Source: Scytolyngbya sp. HA4215-MV1
GTDB lineage: Bacteria > Cyanobacteriota > Cyanobacteriia > Leptolyngbyales > Leptolyngbyaceae
Direction: 5' to 3'
Assembly: GCA_019359045.1 (NCBI GenBank)
Contig: JAHHIA010000006.1
Location: 1-64,000 of the forward strand
DNA length: 64,000 nt
A program made the position numbers and the translations under genes. Below the pieces are notes generated by a model. It did not search any database and was not told the origin of the DNA. It saw only the letters and a list, made by a program, of their open reading frames with translations. Shown one piece after another: positions 51,385-62,851 of the stretch (its first letter is position 1; every line of letters begins with the position of its first letter).

Positions 51385-51473
51385 GCCCAACGGTCGCACT
51401 CACCGGACGCAGATAACCCTTGCAACTCAATCGACCATATTAGAATGTTCCGGGTGCAGCGCGATTGCTAGGT
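51385..51473 (-). other. attC site 1 (end of the integron array)
   Basis: An 89-bp imperfect palindrome is bounded by GCCCAAC at 51385-51391 (matches RYYYAAC) and GCTAGGT at 51467-51473 (one change from GTTRRRY). The inner arms ACTCACCGG / CCGGGTG pair. The stop codon of the oxidoreductase gene lies inside the right-hand box. The central loop contains AGATAACCC, a variant of the motif shared by other sites here. Confidence 0.75.
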
Positions 51474-54066: not shown

Positions 54067-54152
54067 ACCTAACGGTTGCGGTCAGCGGTTGTAGTAACTT
54101 TCAACTCAGCACCAGCAGTTTCCTTCAATCCGCTGTACCGCAATTGTCAGAC
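54067..54152 (-). other. attC site 3
   Basis: An 86-bp site runs from ACCTAAC (54067-54073) to GTCAGAC (54146-54152, one change from GTTRRRY). The arms GGTTGCGGTCAGCGG and CCGCTGTACCGCAATT pair with few mismatches. It lies 15 bp past the stop of the 117-residue gene. Confidence 0.75.
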
Positions 54153-54674: not shown

Positions 54675-54759
54675 GTCTAACGACCAAGTTGAGCGGTGAT
54701 CAATATTATGGAAACGAAGCAGAAATGACTTGGTTCGCCGCCCCAACGACTTGTTAGCT
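54675..54759 (-). other. attC site 4
   Basis: The 85-bp site runs from GTCTAAC (54675-54681) to GTTAGCT (54753-54759), with AACGACCAAGTTGAGCGG on the left arm and CCGCCCCAACGACTTG on the right arm. The Doc stop codon lies inside the right box. This is the most canonical site of the array. Confidence 0.85.
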
Positions 54760-55140
54760 AGTGATTGTGTTCCGTTGCAACCAATCTACAAATGCCTCGC
54801 GTCCTAGCTCACCCGATATAATCGCCAACACTACATGCTCTTGCTCATCTACAGAAGCATTAATTTCCATTCCATTCAGAACAAGAAAGGTTTCTGTCGC
54901 AGCATGACCTGTACGTTTGTTTCCATCCACAAATGGATGATTCATGATGATCGAAAACCCTAATGCTGCTGCTTTCTCCAGCAAACTTGGGTACAGATCT
55001 TCTCCGCCAAACGTCATTTGAGGTTGGGCGATCGCTGATTCCAACAGACCCATATCGCGGATACCCAACGCCCCACCGGATTGTTCAAGGATTTTGCGAT
55101 GTAGCTCTAATACCTCAATTAGTGCCAAGTAGCGAATCAT
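54754..55140 (-). CDS. doc: Doc-type toxin (Fic/Doc fold)
   Basis: The 128-residue protein has the Fic/Doc motif HPFVDGNKR at 68-76, with ESAIAQPQMTFGG upstream as in the death-on-curing family. Doc toxins modify a translation factor (phosphorylation of EF-Tu in the studied case). The start overlaps the antitoxin stop in an ATGA, so they are translationally coupled. The cassette is typical of chromosomal integrons, where toxin-antitoxin pairs stabilise the array. Confidence 0.9.
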   Translation of the reverse strand: MIRYLALIEVLELHRKILEQSGGALGIRDMGLLESAIAQPQMTFGGEDLYPSLLEKAAALGFSIIMNHPFVDGNKRTGHAATETFLVLNGMEINASVDEQEHVVLAIISGELGREAFVDWLQRNTITS

Positions 55141-55334
55141 GCCAAACGCCGATATAATTCAGCGTTTTTTGCTAACACATAATCAGATGCATTAACAAAA
55201 TCGCCTTTTTGTAGATTTAGCCAATCCTCTAGGCTTGCCTTCAAAAGCACTTCAGTCGCAACGCCATGCACTCTTGCTAAATTCTGTAGCTTTTGGAATT
55301 GGCTGTCTGAAAGATCAATTGTGATAGAAGCCAC
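55137..55334 (-). CDS. Antitoxin partner of Doc
   Basis: The 65-residue protein MASITIDLSDSQFQKLQNLARVHG... has a short ribbon-helix-helix-like N-terminus and an acidic C-terminal helix (LAKNAELYRRLA) expected to bind and neutralise the toxin. It is the first gene of the pair and overlaps doc by 4 bp. It probably autoregulates the operon; the promoter should lie in 55335-55425, upstream. Confidence 0.8.
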   Translation of the reverse strand: MASITIDLSDSQFQKLQNLARVHGVATEVLLKASLEDWLNLQKGDFVNASDYVLAKNAELYRRLA

Positions 55335-55425: not shown

Positions 55426-55512
55426 AGCTAACGTTCCCCTTCAGCGGCGGCTATTAACTTTTGCAGCACCACCCAGATCTTCATTCCGTCCGCTGCAAGG
55501 GGGTTGTTAGAC
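55426..55512 (-). other. attC site 5
   Basis: An 87-bp site runs from AGCTAAC (55426-55432) to GTTAGAC (55506-55512), with arms AACGTTCCCCTTCAGCGG / CCGCTGCAAGGGGGTTGTT. A partial second copy (CCGATAACCTCGCTGTACCG) lies just to the left at 55385-55404 and looks like a remnant of another attC. Confidence 0.78.
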
Positions 55513-55552: not shown

Positions 55553-55975
55553 CTAGCTACTTTGCTTGGGGCTAATTTCAAATTCAGAACGCGCACGAAA
55601 GAAACAGACCTCAAACTCGAAGAAGAAATTAGCCTGTCCTAAAATCAAAGGCACATCGGTTGCTCGTGTCCACGCAAATGCTAGATTCACCCTCGGAAAT
55701 GAACTGACTTGAGCATCAACAACGACTGCACGAGCTTCAAATCGAGCCAAGTTTCCTGCCAACACAACTGAGAGTGTCTCATTTTCCCAAATCAAACCCA
55801 GTTGTATCCCCAACTCATAGGGCAAAACATTAACGCTTGCGCCTGTATCCAGTAAACCCTCAGTATTTAAGGCTTGATCATCAAGGCTGAGCGTGAGAGG
55901 CAGGTATGGCATTCGATCAACCATGCCAAGGCTGCTGTCAATGATTTTGTAGGGAAATTTTTGAGTGTCAACCAT
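55553..55975 (-). CDS. Retropepsin-like aspartic protease (cassette gene)
   Basis: The 140-residue protein has the catalytic triad DTGAS at 43-47 and, near the C-terminus, a hydrophobic-hydrophobic-Gly turn (PLILGQANFF), the two signatures of a single-lobe retropepsin that would act as a dimer. It overlaps the 72-residue upstream gene by 8 bp. Such pairs of a small protein and a DTGA protease are frequent in cyanobacteria, but their role is not established. Possible roles are toxin-antitoxin-like or stress proteolysis. Confidence 0.75.
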   Translation of the reverse strand: MVDTQKFPYKIIDSSLGMVDRMPYLPLTLSLDDQALNTEGLLDTGASVNVLPYELGIQLGLIWENETLSVVLAGNLARFEARAVVVDAQVSSFPRVNLAFAWTRATDVPLILGQANFFFEFEVCFFRARSEFEISPKQSS

Positions 55976-56186
55976 TCTTCTCTTGCTGCTTTGTCGCCAG
56001 AAGGTCCATCAGGACATTAGCAGCCTCAGAGCAATTGTAGGGCGACCAAATCGGATACTCTTGGTTCGCAACAAAGAAGTTTGCATCTTCTTCCTTGACC
56101 AGTTCTGTTGCCAGAAACTGCATCAGCCGAAGCTTGTCAATTTTTGGAAGTTCCTGAATTTGTGAGATAAGTTCACCTAATGGCAT
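55968..56186 (-). CDS. Small partner protein of the retropepsin gene
   Basis: The 72-residue acidic protein has a helical N-terminus (LISQIQELPKIDKLRLMQFLATEL) and a central YPIWSPYN stretch. It overlaps the protease gene by 8 bp, so expression is coupled. The N-terminal LPKIDKLRLMQFL pattern is common in cyanobacterial toxin-antitoxin-like small proteins. It may be an inhibitor or substrate of the protease. Confidence 0.65.
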   Translation of the reverse strand: MPLGELISQIQELPKIDKLRLMQFLATELVKEEDANFFVANQEYPIWSPYNCSEAANVLMDLLATKQQEKNG

Positions 56187-57214: not shown

Positions 57215-57300
57215 GTCTAACGGTGAAGTTGTGCGGTAGCAGATAACCTCGAACACCCACCGATAACCTCTGTACCGTCCGCACCAACGCAGTGTTATGC
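57215..57300 (-). other. attC site 6
   Basis: An 86-bp site runs from GTCTAAC (57215-57221) to GTTATGC (57294-57300) with arms AACGGTGAAGTTGTGCGG / CCGCACCAACGCAGTGTT. The loop holds two copies of GATAACCTC. It lies 25 bp past the HNH gene stop. Confidence 0.83.
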
Positions 57301-57325: not shown

Positions 57326-57775
57326 TTAAGACTCAATAGCATCATTGGATGGTGGGTGCCAACCACCTTGAATCCACAAACGACGGGCTTTGACAATCGC
57401 CCCCTCATTATGATTTTGGTCATTCAAATCTAAGCGATCGCACGTTGCACGCCCAATTGAAGTTTTACCTCGAATTACTAGACCGCCTTTCTCCCAAACA
57501 AAATGCTCATTCCACTGATGCAGTCGTGGGTTAAACAACTGAGTAGAAACTTGAGATTCTGGGTCAGTTCCTTCTGTGAAGTTGTAACGGTAGCTATTAC
57601 ATCGCTGACAAGCCAAAGCTAAATTTTCAAATGTATCTGCCCCTCCACGCGATTGCGGTTGGATGTGATCAATTTCAAACCGTGCTGCACTGGCTTCTTC
57701 CGAGGAATGGCAGTATTCACACAGATACTTAGCCCGCTCTCGAACCTGCTGCCGAATCTCTTTTGCAATCGCCAT
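57326..57775 (-). CDS. HNH endonuclease (cassette gene)
   Basis: The 149-residue protein has the zinc-binding pairs CEYC (19-22) and CQRC (56-59) around the catalytic DH at 36-37 and Asn51, the usual HNH layout. A C-terminal region of about 80 residues (HEGAIVKARRLW) follows. It starts 2 bp after the 80-residue gene, so the two are coupled. Similar pairs occur in cyanobacteria, and a toxin-antitoxin or defence role is possible but unproven. DNA cleavage is predicted. Confidence 0.85.
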   Translation of the reverse strand: MAIAKEIRQQVRERAKYLCEYCHSSEEASAARFEIDHIQPQSRGGADTFENLALACQRCNSYRYNFTEGTDPESQVSTQLFNPRLHQWNEHFVWEKGGLVIRGKTSIGRATCDRLDLNDQNHNEGAIVKARRLWIQGGWHPPSNDAIES

Positions 57776-57777
57776 AC

Positions 57778-58020
57778 CTACGCAGACTCAGCAATAATTT
57801 TTGCGTTAAGCAGTGTGAAAATTCGATCGAGTTCCAAAATTCCAGTCAGTTCTACTGCTTCATCGGATGATAACTGTGACTCTCGCTGTTTCCCGTTCAG
57901 GCTCTCTAGTCGCTCTTGTAAGTCTTCGCTAAATTTGAATAAGAAAAGTCCTCGAACTGGCTGGATTTGAATGCCAGCATCAATAAAAGAGGAGGGTTGG
58001 ATCATCAGTTGTGCATTCAT
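57778..58020 (-). CDS. Small partner protein of the HNH gene
   Basis: The 80-residue protein has a mixed N-terminus (SFIDAGIQIQPVRGLFLFKFSEDLQERLESL) and an acidic C-terminal half. It carries AAGGTGAG about 5 bases upstream of ATG. It precedes the HNH gene with a 2-bp gap. Its position and size suit an antitoxin or immunity protein, but there is no recognisable DNA-binding fold. Confidence 0.6.
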   Translation of the reverse strand: MNAQLMIQPSSFIDAGIQIQPVRGLFLFKFSEDLQERLESLNGKQRESQLSSDEAVELTGILELDRIFTLLNAKIIAESA

Positions 58021-58056
58021 GGCTCACCTTAGAGACTATACGATGCTTACTCTGCT

Positions 58057-58500
58057 CTAAATCTTTACAGTTTTGAGAAGAGATAAACTCTGTTTTAATG
58101 CAGCTCGTTCTATTTCATGATTAGGGTTTGCCATCCATTCATTTTCAAGCCATTTATCCCATTTTTCTTTGCTCACTCGGAAACTGCTTCCAGATTGGCG
58201 TAAAATCACTTCTACTTGTTTAGCGGCTTTCCCATATGCAACACAAATATCTTCTGTTCTTTTCAAAATTTTCCAATACGAGTTCCCGTTAAACCAGTCA
58301 ACCTGTTCTTGAAAGTACAAATTGGCAAATTCTTGTCGGAGCTCCCAGCTTGCAAAACAATCCCAGTGCATTGCTGCATCACTATAACCCCACGGCTCTT
58401 CAAAAGCAGACATAGCGTAAATCGGGTCTGAGAGTCTTTGGTTGCACAATATACACTCAGTTAAATATTCATTGGCTTCATCGACTGAAATCAGCGCCAT
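58057..58500 (-). CDS. Hypothetical protein (cassette gene)
   Basis: The 147-residue protein has a Cys/His-rich N-terminus (CILCNQRL, then MHWDCF about 30 residues later) that could bind zinc, followed by helical, Trp-rich sequence (WDKWLENEW). I chose ATG 58500 because AGAGGAT precedes it; the frame is open from 58539. It lies 36 bp upstream of the HNH pair in the same cassette. I do not recognise a family; immunity or accessory roles in the HNH system are possible. Confidence 0.55.
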   Translation of the reverse strand: MALISVDEANEYLTECILCNQRLSDPIYAMSAFEEPWGYSDAAMHWDCFASWELRQEFANLYFQEQVDWFNGNSYWKILKRTEDICVAYGKAAKQVEVILRQSGSSFRVSKEKWDKWLENEWMANPNHEIERAALKQSLSLLKTVKI

Positions 58501-58605: not shown

Positions 58606-58691
58606 GCATAACGACCAAGGTGAGCCGCCGCAGATGACCTCTGAAACTCACCGATAACCTCTCGGCGGTCGGCTCCAACGACTTGTTAGCT
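58606..58691 (-). other. attC site 7
   Basis: An 86-bp site runs from GCATAAC (58606-58612) to GTTAGCT (58685-58691), with arms AACGACCAAGGTGAGCCGCC / GGCGGTCGGCTCCAACGACTTG. The loop has GATGACCTC and CCGATAACCTC. It lies 40 bp past the vapC stop; a third CCGATAACC at 58700 is a further remnant. Confidence 0.85.
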
Positions 58692-58731: not shown

Positions 58732-59130
58732 CTAAGGCTGAAAACGAAGGTTTTGAAGAGGGCGCACCTGGGCAATGGCTTCAAAGTCACGATCATTGTG
58801 AATCAGAATCAAATTGTTTTCCAGTGCTGCTTGAGCAATGCAGCAATCGATTGGACTGCGAACAGTAAGTCCTTGGCGGCGTAGGTCAAAGTAGATACGG
58901 GCTGCTGCTTGCCAAGACTGATTTGTAAGCTCAGCGTAATCTTGTGTTTCGAGGTAAGTGGAAAGGAGATCCCATTCTTGCTCATTCAAGCTGCCTTGGA
59001 GCAGTTCAAGCTGAGTAAATCGAGTGAGTAAAACTTCTCGATTGGCAATCAGGGTTTCAAGTTGCTGGCGAGTTTGACCACTGCGATCGCGAAAGACGCT
59101 GATCCAAACAGACGTATCAATCAGCAGCAT
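58732..59130 (-). CDS. vapC: PIN-domain toxin VapC
   Basis: The 132-residue RNase-type toxin has the PIN acidic residues in LLIDTSVW (Asp5), the Glu of FTQLELLQG, the Asp of SPIDCCIA and HNDRDF near the end. It presumably cleaves tRNA or other RNA. I chose ATG 59130 (MLLIDTSVW); the frame extends upstream to 59226 inside vapB. The two genes overlap by 14 bp, so they are translated together. Confidence 0.9.
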   Translation of the reverse strand: MLLIDTSVWISVFRDRSGQTRQQLETLIANREVLLTRFTQLELLQGSLNEQEWDLLSTYLETQDYAELTNQSWQAAARIYFDLRRQGLTVRSPIDCCIAQAALENNLILIHNDRDFEAIAQVRPLQNLRFQP

Positions 59131-59329
59131 GACGAGTCTCGCGCAAAGCCTTATAATCAAAATCCTCGGTAAATTGGATTTGCCCCGCGAGATCCAGAAG
59201 GTTTTTCTTGCGGCGCGATCGCACAAATTCTGTCAAAGCAAGATTTACCAACTCTTCTTGAGTCGTAAGGTTGGTAAGTTGAAAAGCCTCATTGAGGAGA
59301 GATTCATCCAGGTTCAGGGTAATTTGCAT
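59117..59329 (-). CDS. vapB: VapB-type antitoxin
   Basis: The 70-residue protein MQITLNLDESLLNEAFQLT... has a strand then two helices (ribbon-helix-helix-like) and a basic/acidic tail ending in the vapC overlap. It is expected to bind VapC and the operon promoter. I chose Met at 59329; a Met nine codons upstream (59356) is possible. Confidence 0.85.
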   Translation of the reverse strand: MQITLNLDESLLNEAFQLTNLTTQEELVNLALTEFVRSRRKKNLLDLAGQIQFTEDFDYKALRETRHAAD

Positions 59330-59424
59330 AGGATAAGTAAAGGCTGAAGTAGGCACAATTTCTCACAGTTCAACTCTACAGACCGATCAGCTTTCACTGG
59401 TGACGTAGCTAATCCTTGTGAGCC

Positions 59425-60593: not shown

Positions 60594-60678
60594 AGCTAAC
60601 GGCACAGTTGAGCGGCAGCAGACAGATTAGATTAACACCAATATCTTCTCGGCTGTCCGCTCCAACGCAGTGTTAGCC
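60594..60678 (-). other. attC site 8
   Basis: An 85-bp site runs from AGCTAAC (60594-60600) to GTTAGCC (60672-60678), with arms AACGGCACAGTTGAGCGG / CCGCTCCAACGCAGTGTT. It lies 25 bp beyond the stop of the 518-residue gene, the first cassette after the presumed attI. Confidence 0.82.
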
Positions 60679-62473: not shown

Positions 62474-62512
62474 TACTTTATAGACAGATCCGATCTATCT
62501 AACACGCTCCTA

Positions 62513-62590
62513 CGGGGTATATAGGCAGAATAACGTCCGTCTATATGCCCTTGCGGGGTATATAGGCAGAATAACGTCTGTCTATATACC
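62513..62590. repeat. Tandem palindromic repeat next to intI
   Basis: Two 37-38-bp copies, period 41, differ at two positions in CGGGGTATATAGGCAGAATAACGTC-GTCTATATRCC. Each is an inverted repeat (GGTATATAGRCAG / CTGTCTATATACC). Further TATAGACAG words occur at 62480 and 62644. They may be IntI binding sites of attI or a small transposon-like repeat. Confidence 0.65.
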
Positions 62591-62668
62591 TAAAACAACA
62601 ATTAAGGCAGACGAAGTGCCGTTTATATACCCAAATCGGACTTTAGACAGAATATATCCTCCCATTGA

Positions 62669-62851
62669 GAAATTAGTGCTTCAACACAGAATCAAGCCCT
62701 CAGCGCCTTACTTTTTCTCTACCGCTATGTCCTTCAGCAGCCCTTAGAATCATCGATTGACGCAGTTCGGGCAAAGCAATCCCAGCATCTGCCGACTGTG
62801 CTGACTCCGACCGAAGTGCGTGAGATCATTCAGCAGCTAGCGAGTGTTTAG
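62669..62851 (+). pseudogene. intI: Integron integrase (IntI) remnant
   Basis: The 60-codon fragment encodes EISASTQNQALSALLFLYRYVL, then IDAVRAKQSQHLPTVLTPTEVREIIQQL, the end of the N-terminal domain and start of the catalytic domain of an IntI-type tyrosine recombinase (about residues 55-115 of a protein of some 320). A TGA lies just 5' (62666) and TAG ends it at 62849-62851. The catalytic Arg, His and Tyr are all missing. It is transcribed away from the cassettes, as intI should be, and abuts the group II intron fragment. Confidence 0.85.

What the first reader, a model, noticed from the sequence alone, without database searches (positions are those of the whole stretch)
57326..58500. Three-gene HNH cassette as a possible defence or toxin system
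An HNH nuclease, an 80-residue coupled partner 2 bp upstream, and a 147-residue Cys/His-containing protein 36 bp further upstream form one cassette ending at attC 6. The layout resembles nuclease plus neutraliser modules. The third gene is unrecognised and could be an immunity or sensing protein.
Basis: inference. Interest (0 to 1): 0.6.

Follow-up and report, generated by a model that had tools for sequence, protein, structure and literature searches.

The report
HNH nuclease with dedicated small partner
In a cyanobacterium's array of movable gene cassettes, a DNA-cutting enzyme travels with a small partner protein that probably keeps it harmless, like a toxin and its antidote; the third gene beside them is an unrelated neighbour.

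Summary
The three ORFs are real, with the stated spacing, between two attC sites. The three-gene reading fails. In cyanobacteria the 80-aa partner (PAR) and the HNH gene form a two-gene module: of 66 close HNH homologues in 386 genomes, 63 have PAR directly 5' (-5 to +20 bp). The other three show a cut-off, frameshifted or partial PAR. All seven HNH paralogues of this type in the genome have a coupled upstream gene. The 147-aa third gene has no credible homologue in two samples of 386 and 388 genomes, in plasmids, phages or viral contigs. DNA homology of relatives starts inside the 36-bp gap between it and PAR. PAR-HNH plus attC recurs in at least seven other contigs. Both genes are under purifying selection. 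PAR often survives where HNH is broken or absent; the reverse is rare. PAR matches no curated family; it is predicted as a beta-hairpin plus a helical hairpin shared with longer partners. Best reading: a nuclease-neutraliser (type II TA-like) module carried as an integron cassette. Toxicity and neutralisation are untested.

The parts
57326..57775 (-). HNH endonuclease gene, 149 aa (predicted toxin/effector)
   Evidence: PF01844 E 1.4e-15; CxxC, D36-H37, N51, CxxC-N60 conserved or nearly so in 19 aligned homologues (catalytic roles recalled)
57778..58020 (-). PAR, 80-aa partner (predicted neutraliser), ends 2 bp before HNH starts
   Evidence: coupled in 63 of 66 close HNH homologues; no Pfam, NCBIfam, PADLOC or PHROG match; model pLDDT 86.6
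58021..58056 (-). 36-bp gap in which DNA homology of the mobile pair begins (about 58039-58047); holds a TATAGT (-10-like) and an AAGGTGAG Shine-Dalgarno-like stretch
   Evidence: the promoter scan found no sigma-70-type site on this strand, so the promoter is inference
57215..57299 (-). attC site closing the cassette after HNH
   Evidence: 94.8 bits with model R1 (in the training set)
58606..58690 (-). attC site of the preceding (VapBC-bearing) cassette; 5' border of the three-gene interval
   Evidence: 78.2 bits (in the training set)
58057..58500 (-). 147-aa Cys/His-containing gene: co-passenger in the interval, not part of the module
   Evidence: no homologue co-occurs
62648..62848 (+). decayed integron integrase fragment, divergent from the cassettes
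   Evidence: TIGR02249 60.2 bits, one TGA inside

Best explanation
A two-gene nuclease-neutraliser module (type II toxin-antitoxin-like), carried as an integron gene cassette. The upstream gene makes an 80-aa protein (PAR) that is translated just before the HNH nuclease. Its conserved C-terminal helical hairpin binds the HNH protein and holds it inactive. If the partner is lost or outcompeted, the HNH enzyme cuts DNA and stops the cell, which makes the cassette addictive and possibly protective against phage or competing elements. The 147-aa gene upstream is an unrelated passenger in the same attC-attC interval. SHOWN: gene order and coupling, phylum-wide co-occurrence, purifying selection on both genes, conserved HNH active-site residues, attC-borne mobility, frequent loss of HNH with PAR kept. 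INFERRED: toxicity, direct binding, DNA as target, own promoter, addiction or defence role.
For: Of 81 HNH hits (E<=1e-35) in 55 of 386 cyanobacterial genomes, 63 have PAR (E<=1e-8) directly 5', spaced -5..+20 bp. Of the 18 others, 3 at >=52% identity have a cut-off, frameshifted or partial PAR, and 14 of 15 at 45-51% have another coupled small upstream ORF. All 7 HNH paralogues of this type in the own genome have a coupled upstream gene. In Nostocales homologues the genes overlap by 4 nt. PAR hits lack a full HNH in 54 of 117 cases, 20 of them with HNH fragments; in the 47 loci, 39 have a recoverable PAR frame and 19 of those lack an open HNH, against one clear reverse case (L033). dN/dS of the window genes against 8 intact relatives is 0.06-0.29 for PAR (8 comparisons) and 0.06-0.13 for HNH (7 with usable dS). 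The PAR C-terminal hairpin is homologous to that of longer HNH partners (hhalign 94.8%, E 5e-8). attC follows HNH in 7 of 47 loci, weakly in an eighth. Neighbouring cassettes hold VapBC- and Phd/Doc-like pairs.
Against: No toxicity or binding data. Length-scaled, the lesion asymmetry (10 HNH-only against 1 PAR-only where both genes can be aligned) gives p about 0.06, some lesions may be shared by close relatives, and that set was fetched with PAR as query. L033 and G085:C22 keep an open HNH with a damaged PAR. PAR has no recognisable DNA-binding domain and no convincing structural antitoxin relative. The HNH model was too poor to use (pLDDT 46).
Confidence: 0.57

Rival explanations
1. The pair is a restriction- or defence-type nuclease with an obligate accessory subunit: PAR activates, targets or stabilises HNH rather than neutralising it.
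For: Best PADLOC matches of HNH are PtuB (Septu) models, E 2.9e-14 over residues 5-120; defence genes lie directly upstream in some loci (Abi_alpha in L012, AbiA-like RT in L011, GHKL plus SduA_C-like in L033).
Against: PAR persists without full HNH in 54 of 117 hits, odd for a mere subunit; upstream neighbours are otherwise heterogeneous: no PADLOC or Pfam family in more than 2 of 29.
Confidence: 0.27
2. A free-standing homing-type HNH endonuclease that spreads itself, with PAR as its regulator.
For: HNH fold; sharp unit borders; many decayed copies.
Against: Neighbours differ from locus to locus rather than being one homing site; purifying selection on both genes; movement is explained by attC in part of the loci.
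Confidence: 0.08
3. A true three-gene system in which the 147-aa protein senses or gives immunity.
For: One attC-attC interval, same strand, 36-bp gap.
Against: No relative of the third gene near any of 47 PAR loci or in two samples of 386 and 388 genomes beyond one weak partial hit (E 0.004, 33% identity, query residues 42-113); relatives' homology stops between the genes; in L012 and L022 other genes sit at the same place.
Confidence: 0.04

Closest known systems
Septu PtuB HNH nuclease (also HNH node D51 of the NetFlax TA network, PMC10440598, passages seen)
   Same: HNH domain with a similar C-terminal extension (PADLOC PtuB E 2.9e-14, residues 5-120); bicistronic; counted as TA-like in NetFlax
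   Different: Partner is an 80-aa protein without ATPase domain instead of the AAA ATPase PtuA; NCBIfam PtuB score 25.6 against a cut-off of 150
Type II toxin-antitoxin modules in integron cassette arrays (VapBC, Phd-Doc)
   Same: Two small coupled genes, partner first, attC-borne, often decayed; such pairs occur in the same array
   Different: HNH enzyme instead of PIN or Fic; the 80-aa partner has no recognised DNA-binding domain
HNH domains of IscB/Cas9
   Same: HNH core residues (NF040563 51 bits)
   Different: Below cut-off (175); no RuvC or guide-RNA parts in a 149-aa protein
UPF0291/YnzC helical hairpin
   Same: Helical hairpin, 52 residues at 1.5 A, Z 6.4
   Different: Z under the level the tool calls informative for helical folds; no functional link

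Membership tests
Type II toxin-antitoxin system | Two small, adjacent, co-directional, coupled genes | tested here: met
   2-bp gap in the window; -5..+20 bp between matches in 63 pairs
Type II toxin-antitoxin system | Pair conserved across distant genomes and mobile | tested here: met
   attC next to the pair in 7-8 of 47 loci; on plasmids
Type II toxin-antitoxin system | Partner tolerated alone, effector not | tested here: inconclusive
   54 of 117 PAR without full HNH against 3 of 66 HNH without a PAR hit; lesion test p about 0.06
Type II toxin-antitoxin system | Toxin inhibits growth, antitoxin neutralises by direct binding | not testable with these tools
   needs expression assays
Type II toxin-antitoxin system | Antitoxin DNA-binding domain (usual, not universal) | tested here: inconclusive
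   none recognised in PAR; RHH_5 below cut-off in two longer partners
Septu (PtuAB) | AAA ATPase PtuA as partner | tested here: not met
   partner is 80 aa without Pfam or PADLOC match
Septu (PtuAB) | PtuB-type HNH above the family cut-off | tested here: not met
   NF041761 25.6 bits, cut-off 150
RNA-guided IscB/Cas9 nuclease | Model score above cut-off, RuvC part | tested here: not met
   51 bits against 175; only residues 5-63 match
Integron gene cassette | attC sites on both sides in array orientation | tested here: met
Integron gene cassette | integron integrase in the genome | tested here: met
   488-bit IntI on contig C25; fragment at 62648-62848 in the window

The most novel reading that the evidence does not exclude
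A cyanobacterium-wide, undescribed family of HNH nuclease-antitoxin modules. Its antitoxins share one toxin-binding helical hairpin but carry interchangeable N-termini (RHH-like, other, or the short beta-hairpin form seen here). Integrons move the compact form, and it rides behind anti-phage genes as an addiction or abortive-infection device.
Probability: 0.32. Interest if true: 0.6.

Novelty: new variant of a known kind. Interest (0 to 1): 0.4.

Why it matters
HNH enzymes are common in restriction, CRISPR and homing systems. In the held papers searched I saw no report of this small HNH family with this partner as a toxin-antitoxin pair; the nearest was the PtuB-like node in PMC10440598. The partner has no curated family. 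A nuclease-neutraliser pair seen in 55 (HNH) to 70 (PAR) of 386 sampled cyanobacterial genomes, and moved by integrons, would add a DNA-targeting class to cyanobacterial TA systems and explain many 'HNH endonuclease | hypothetical protein' annotations.

Tried and rejected
Third gene: no convincing match in Pfam, NCBIfam, PADLOC, PHROGs or PDB sequences, plasmids, phages, viral contigs (56); two genome samples gave only the own copy and one weak hit (26, 77). GC by codon position is compatible with coding but not strong.

A fixed upstream defence gene: the idea came from Abi_alpha (L012, L027), an AbiA-like RT (L011) and GHKL/SduA_C (L033). The scan of 29 upstream neighbours (PADLOC, Pfam) and of 25 downstream neighbours as control (PADLOC) showed no recurrent family, so it is kept only as a speculative part of the novel case. 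Of 31 upstream ORFs, two (L027, L048, near-duplicates of L012 and L047) were left out. Of 35 downstream ORFs, ten (L013, L020, L024, L032, L039, L041, L042, L046, L047, L048) were left out, most as HNH remnants.

Own promoter: a -10-like TATAGT is visible, but the promoter scan found nothing on this strand. The HNH structure model failed (pLDDT 46). Structural neighbours of PAR are only common helical hairpins. A paper search for 'HNH toxin' with 'antitoxin' found 0 papers. The mycobacterial case in PMC9416677 (passages seen) is an ArsR regulator acting on expression of HNH DNases, a different arrangement.

Full report
WHAT IS THERE. On the - strand the window has a 147-aa ORF (58057-58500), an 80-aa ORF (57778-58020, called PAR here) and a 149-aa HNH ORF (57326-57775), with gaps of 36 and 2 bp. 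Six attC sites of 84-86 nt lie at 60594-60677, 58606-58690, 57215-57299, 55426-55511, 54675-54758 and 54067-54151. They trained the model R1, so their scores are not independent; R1 also finds a weak seventh site at 51385-51472 (27.9 bits) and 28 sites in the whole genome, the six included. An integrase fragment with a stop codon lies at 62648-62848, divergent from the cassettes; an intact integron integrase (488 bits) is on another contig. So the finding sits in a cassette array next to a dead integrase.

THE PAIR. With PAR as query, 47 loci came back, nearly all titled as cyanobacteria (one record is titled Chloroflexaceae). HNH follows PAR directly in most, and the third gene in none. In genome samples the same 386 genomes were searched with both proteins: HNH at E<=1e-35 gave 81 hits in 55 genomes, PAR at E<=1e-8 gave 117 hits in 70 genomes. 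Pairing by coordinates: 63 of 81 HNH hits have PAR just 5'; among the 66 hits with at least 52% identity it is 63. The three exceptions were inspected: one contig ends inside PAR, one PAR is frameshifted beside a truncated HNH, one PAR is a remnant beside an apparently open HNH. Of the 15 hits at 45-51% identity, 12 have a different coupled upstream ORF by script and two more by eye; one has none that I recognise. In the own genome, 10 HNH hits were found. Three (L008-L010) are a different, longer HNH type, matched only over about 55-60 residues, and have no coupled partner. The other seven (the window's and six more) all have a coupled upstream gene of 80-136 aa.

THE PARTNER FAMILY. PAR has no Pfam, NCBIfam, PADLOC or PHROG match. 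Its C-terminal half, with the stretch GILELDRIFTLLNAK, is nearly invariant in 32 homologues. The predicted structure (pLDDT 86.6) is a beta-hairpin plus a helical hairpin. The hairpin is shared with longer partners of other HNH paralogues (hhalign 94.8%, E 5e-8; weaker against a second set, 57%), whose N-termini differ and are RHH-like in places (RHH_5 below cut-off). Structural searches gave only common helical hairpins.

THE NUCLEASE. HNH matches PF01844 (E 1.4e-15). Among 19 homologues the CxxC pairs, D36, N51 and N60 are invariant and H37 nearly so (the catalytic roles are recalled). PtuB models of PADLOC match residues 5-120 (E 2.9e-14), but NCBIfam PtuB is far below its cut-off. The HNH structure model was unusable.

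SELECTION AND DECAY. Against eight intact relatives, dN/dS is 0.06-0.29 for PAR (8 comparisons) and 0.06-0.13 for HNH (7 with usable dS). PAR often outlives HNH: 54 of 117 PAR hits lack a full HNH, 20 of them with HNH fragments and 34 with none in the stretch examined (up to 1.1 kb) (one fragment, L152, is doubtful). In the 47 loci, 39 have a recoverable PAR frame; 20 of these have an open HNH and 19 do not. The frames of L024 (start lost), L027 and L033 (altered C-termini) are counted among the 39. Where both genes can be aligned I count 10 HNH-only lesions (L013, L020, L028, L031, L032, L039, L041, L044, L046, L047) and one PAR-only lesion (L033); L024 (both genes) and L045 (shortened HNH) were left out. 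With lengths taken into account p is about 0.06, and some lesions may be shared by descent. This points to HNH being the costly gene but does not prove it.

MOBILITY AND BORDERS. DNA homology of close relatives starts at window position about 58039-58047, inside the 36-bp gap, and in several loci runs through HNH into the attC. attC lies directly after HNH in L011, L012, L013, L014, L022, L023 and L033 (all in the training set) and, weakly, L015. Upstream genes differ: Abi_alpha in L012, an IS110 transposase in L022, a GHKL/SduA_C-like pair in L033, an AbiA-like RT in L011. Over 29 upstream neighbours no family recurs more than twice. So PAR-HNH is the unit and the 147-aa gene is one of many possible upstream passengers.

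THE THIRD GENE. Its CxxC and HWDC suggest zinc binding (by eye). No homologue in 386 and 388 genomes (overlapping samples) apart from the own copy and one weak hit (E 0.004); none in plasmids, phages or viral contigs.

KNOWN OR NEW. Paper searches (listings) and passages in PMC2701414, PMC4963859, PMC9416677, PMC8352920, PMC3482391, PMC10440598 and PMC11980606 showed no description of this pair as a TA system. PMC10440598 treats a PtuB-like HNH node with an AAA ATPase partner as TA-like, which is the nearest precedent. I therefore call it a new variant of a known kind: TA-like architecture, an HNH effector, an uncatalogued partner family, integron-borne. Toxicity, target and neutralisation remain to be tested.

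Noticed in passing
window 58732-59356: VapBC-like pair (PIN domain PF01850 plus small upstream gene) in the preceding cassette, which also holds a 345-aa gene without any match.
   Followed up: partly
window 54754-55334: Phd/Doc-like pair (Fic domain PF02661 plus 65-aa upstream gene) lying between two attC sites.
   Followed up: partly
window 55553-56186: Small aspartyl-protease-like protein (PF13650, barely over cut-off) overlapping a 72-aa upstream gene: another coupled pair in the array.
   Followed up: no
window 62506-62587: Two tandem 41-bp units (90% identical) beside the integrase fragment, near where attI would be expected.
   Followed up: no
L012 4224-4979 and L027: Abi_alpha (PADLOC PDC-S47) gene directly upstream of PAR-HNH, about 90 bp after an attC site in L012.
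   Followed up: partly
L011 3274-4949: AbiA-like reverse transcriptase, split over two overlapping ORFs, directly upstream of PAR-HNH.
   Followed up: partly
whole genome G000: 28 attC-like sites over many contigs and one intact integron integrase (C25:2345-3286): scattered cassette arrays.
   Followed up: no
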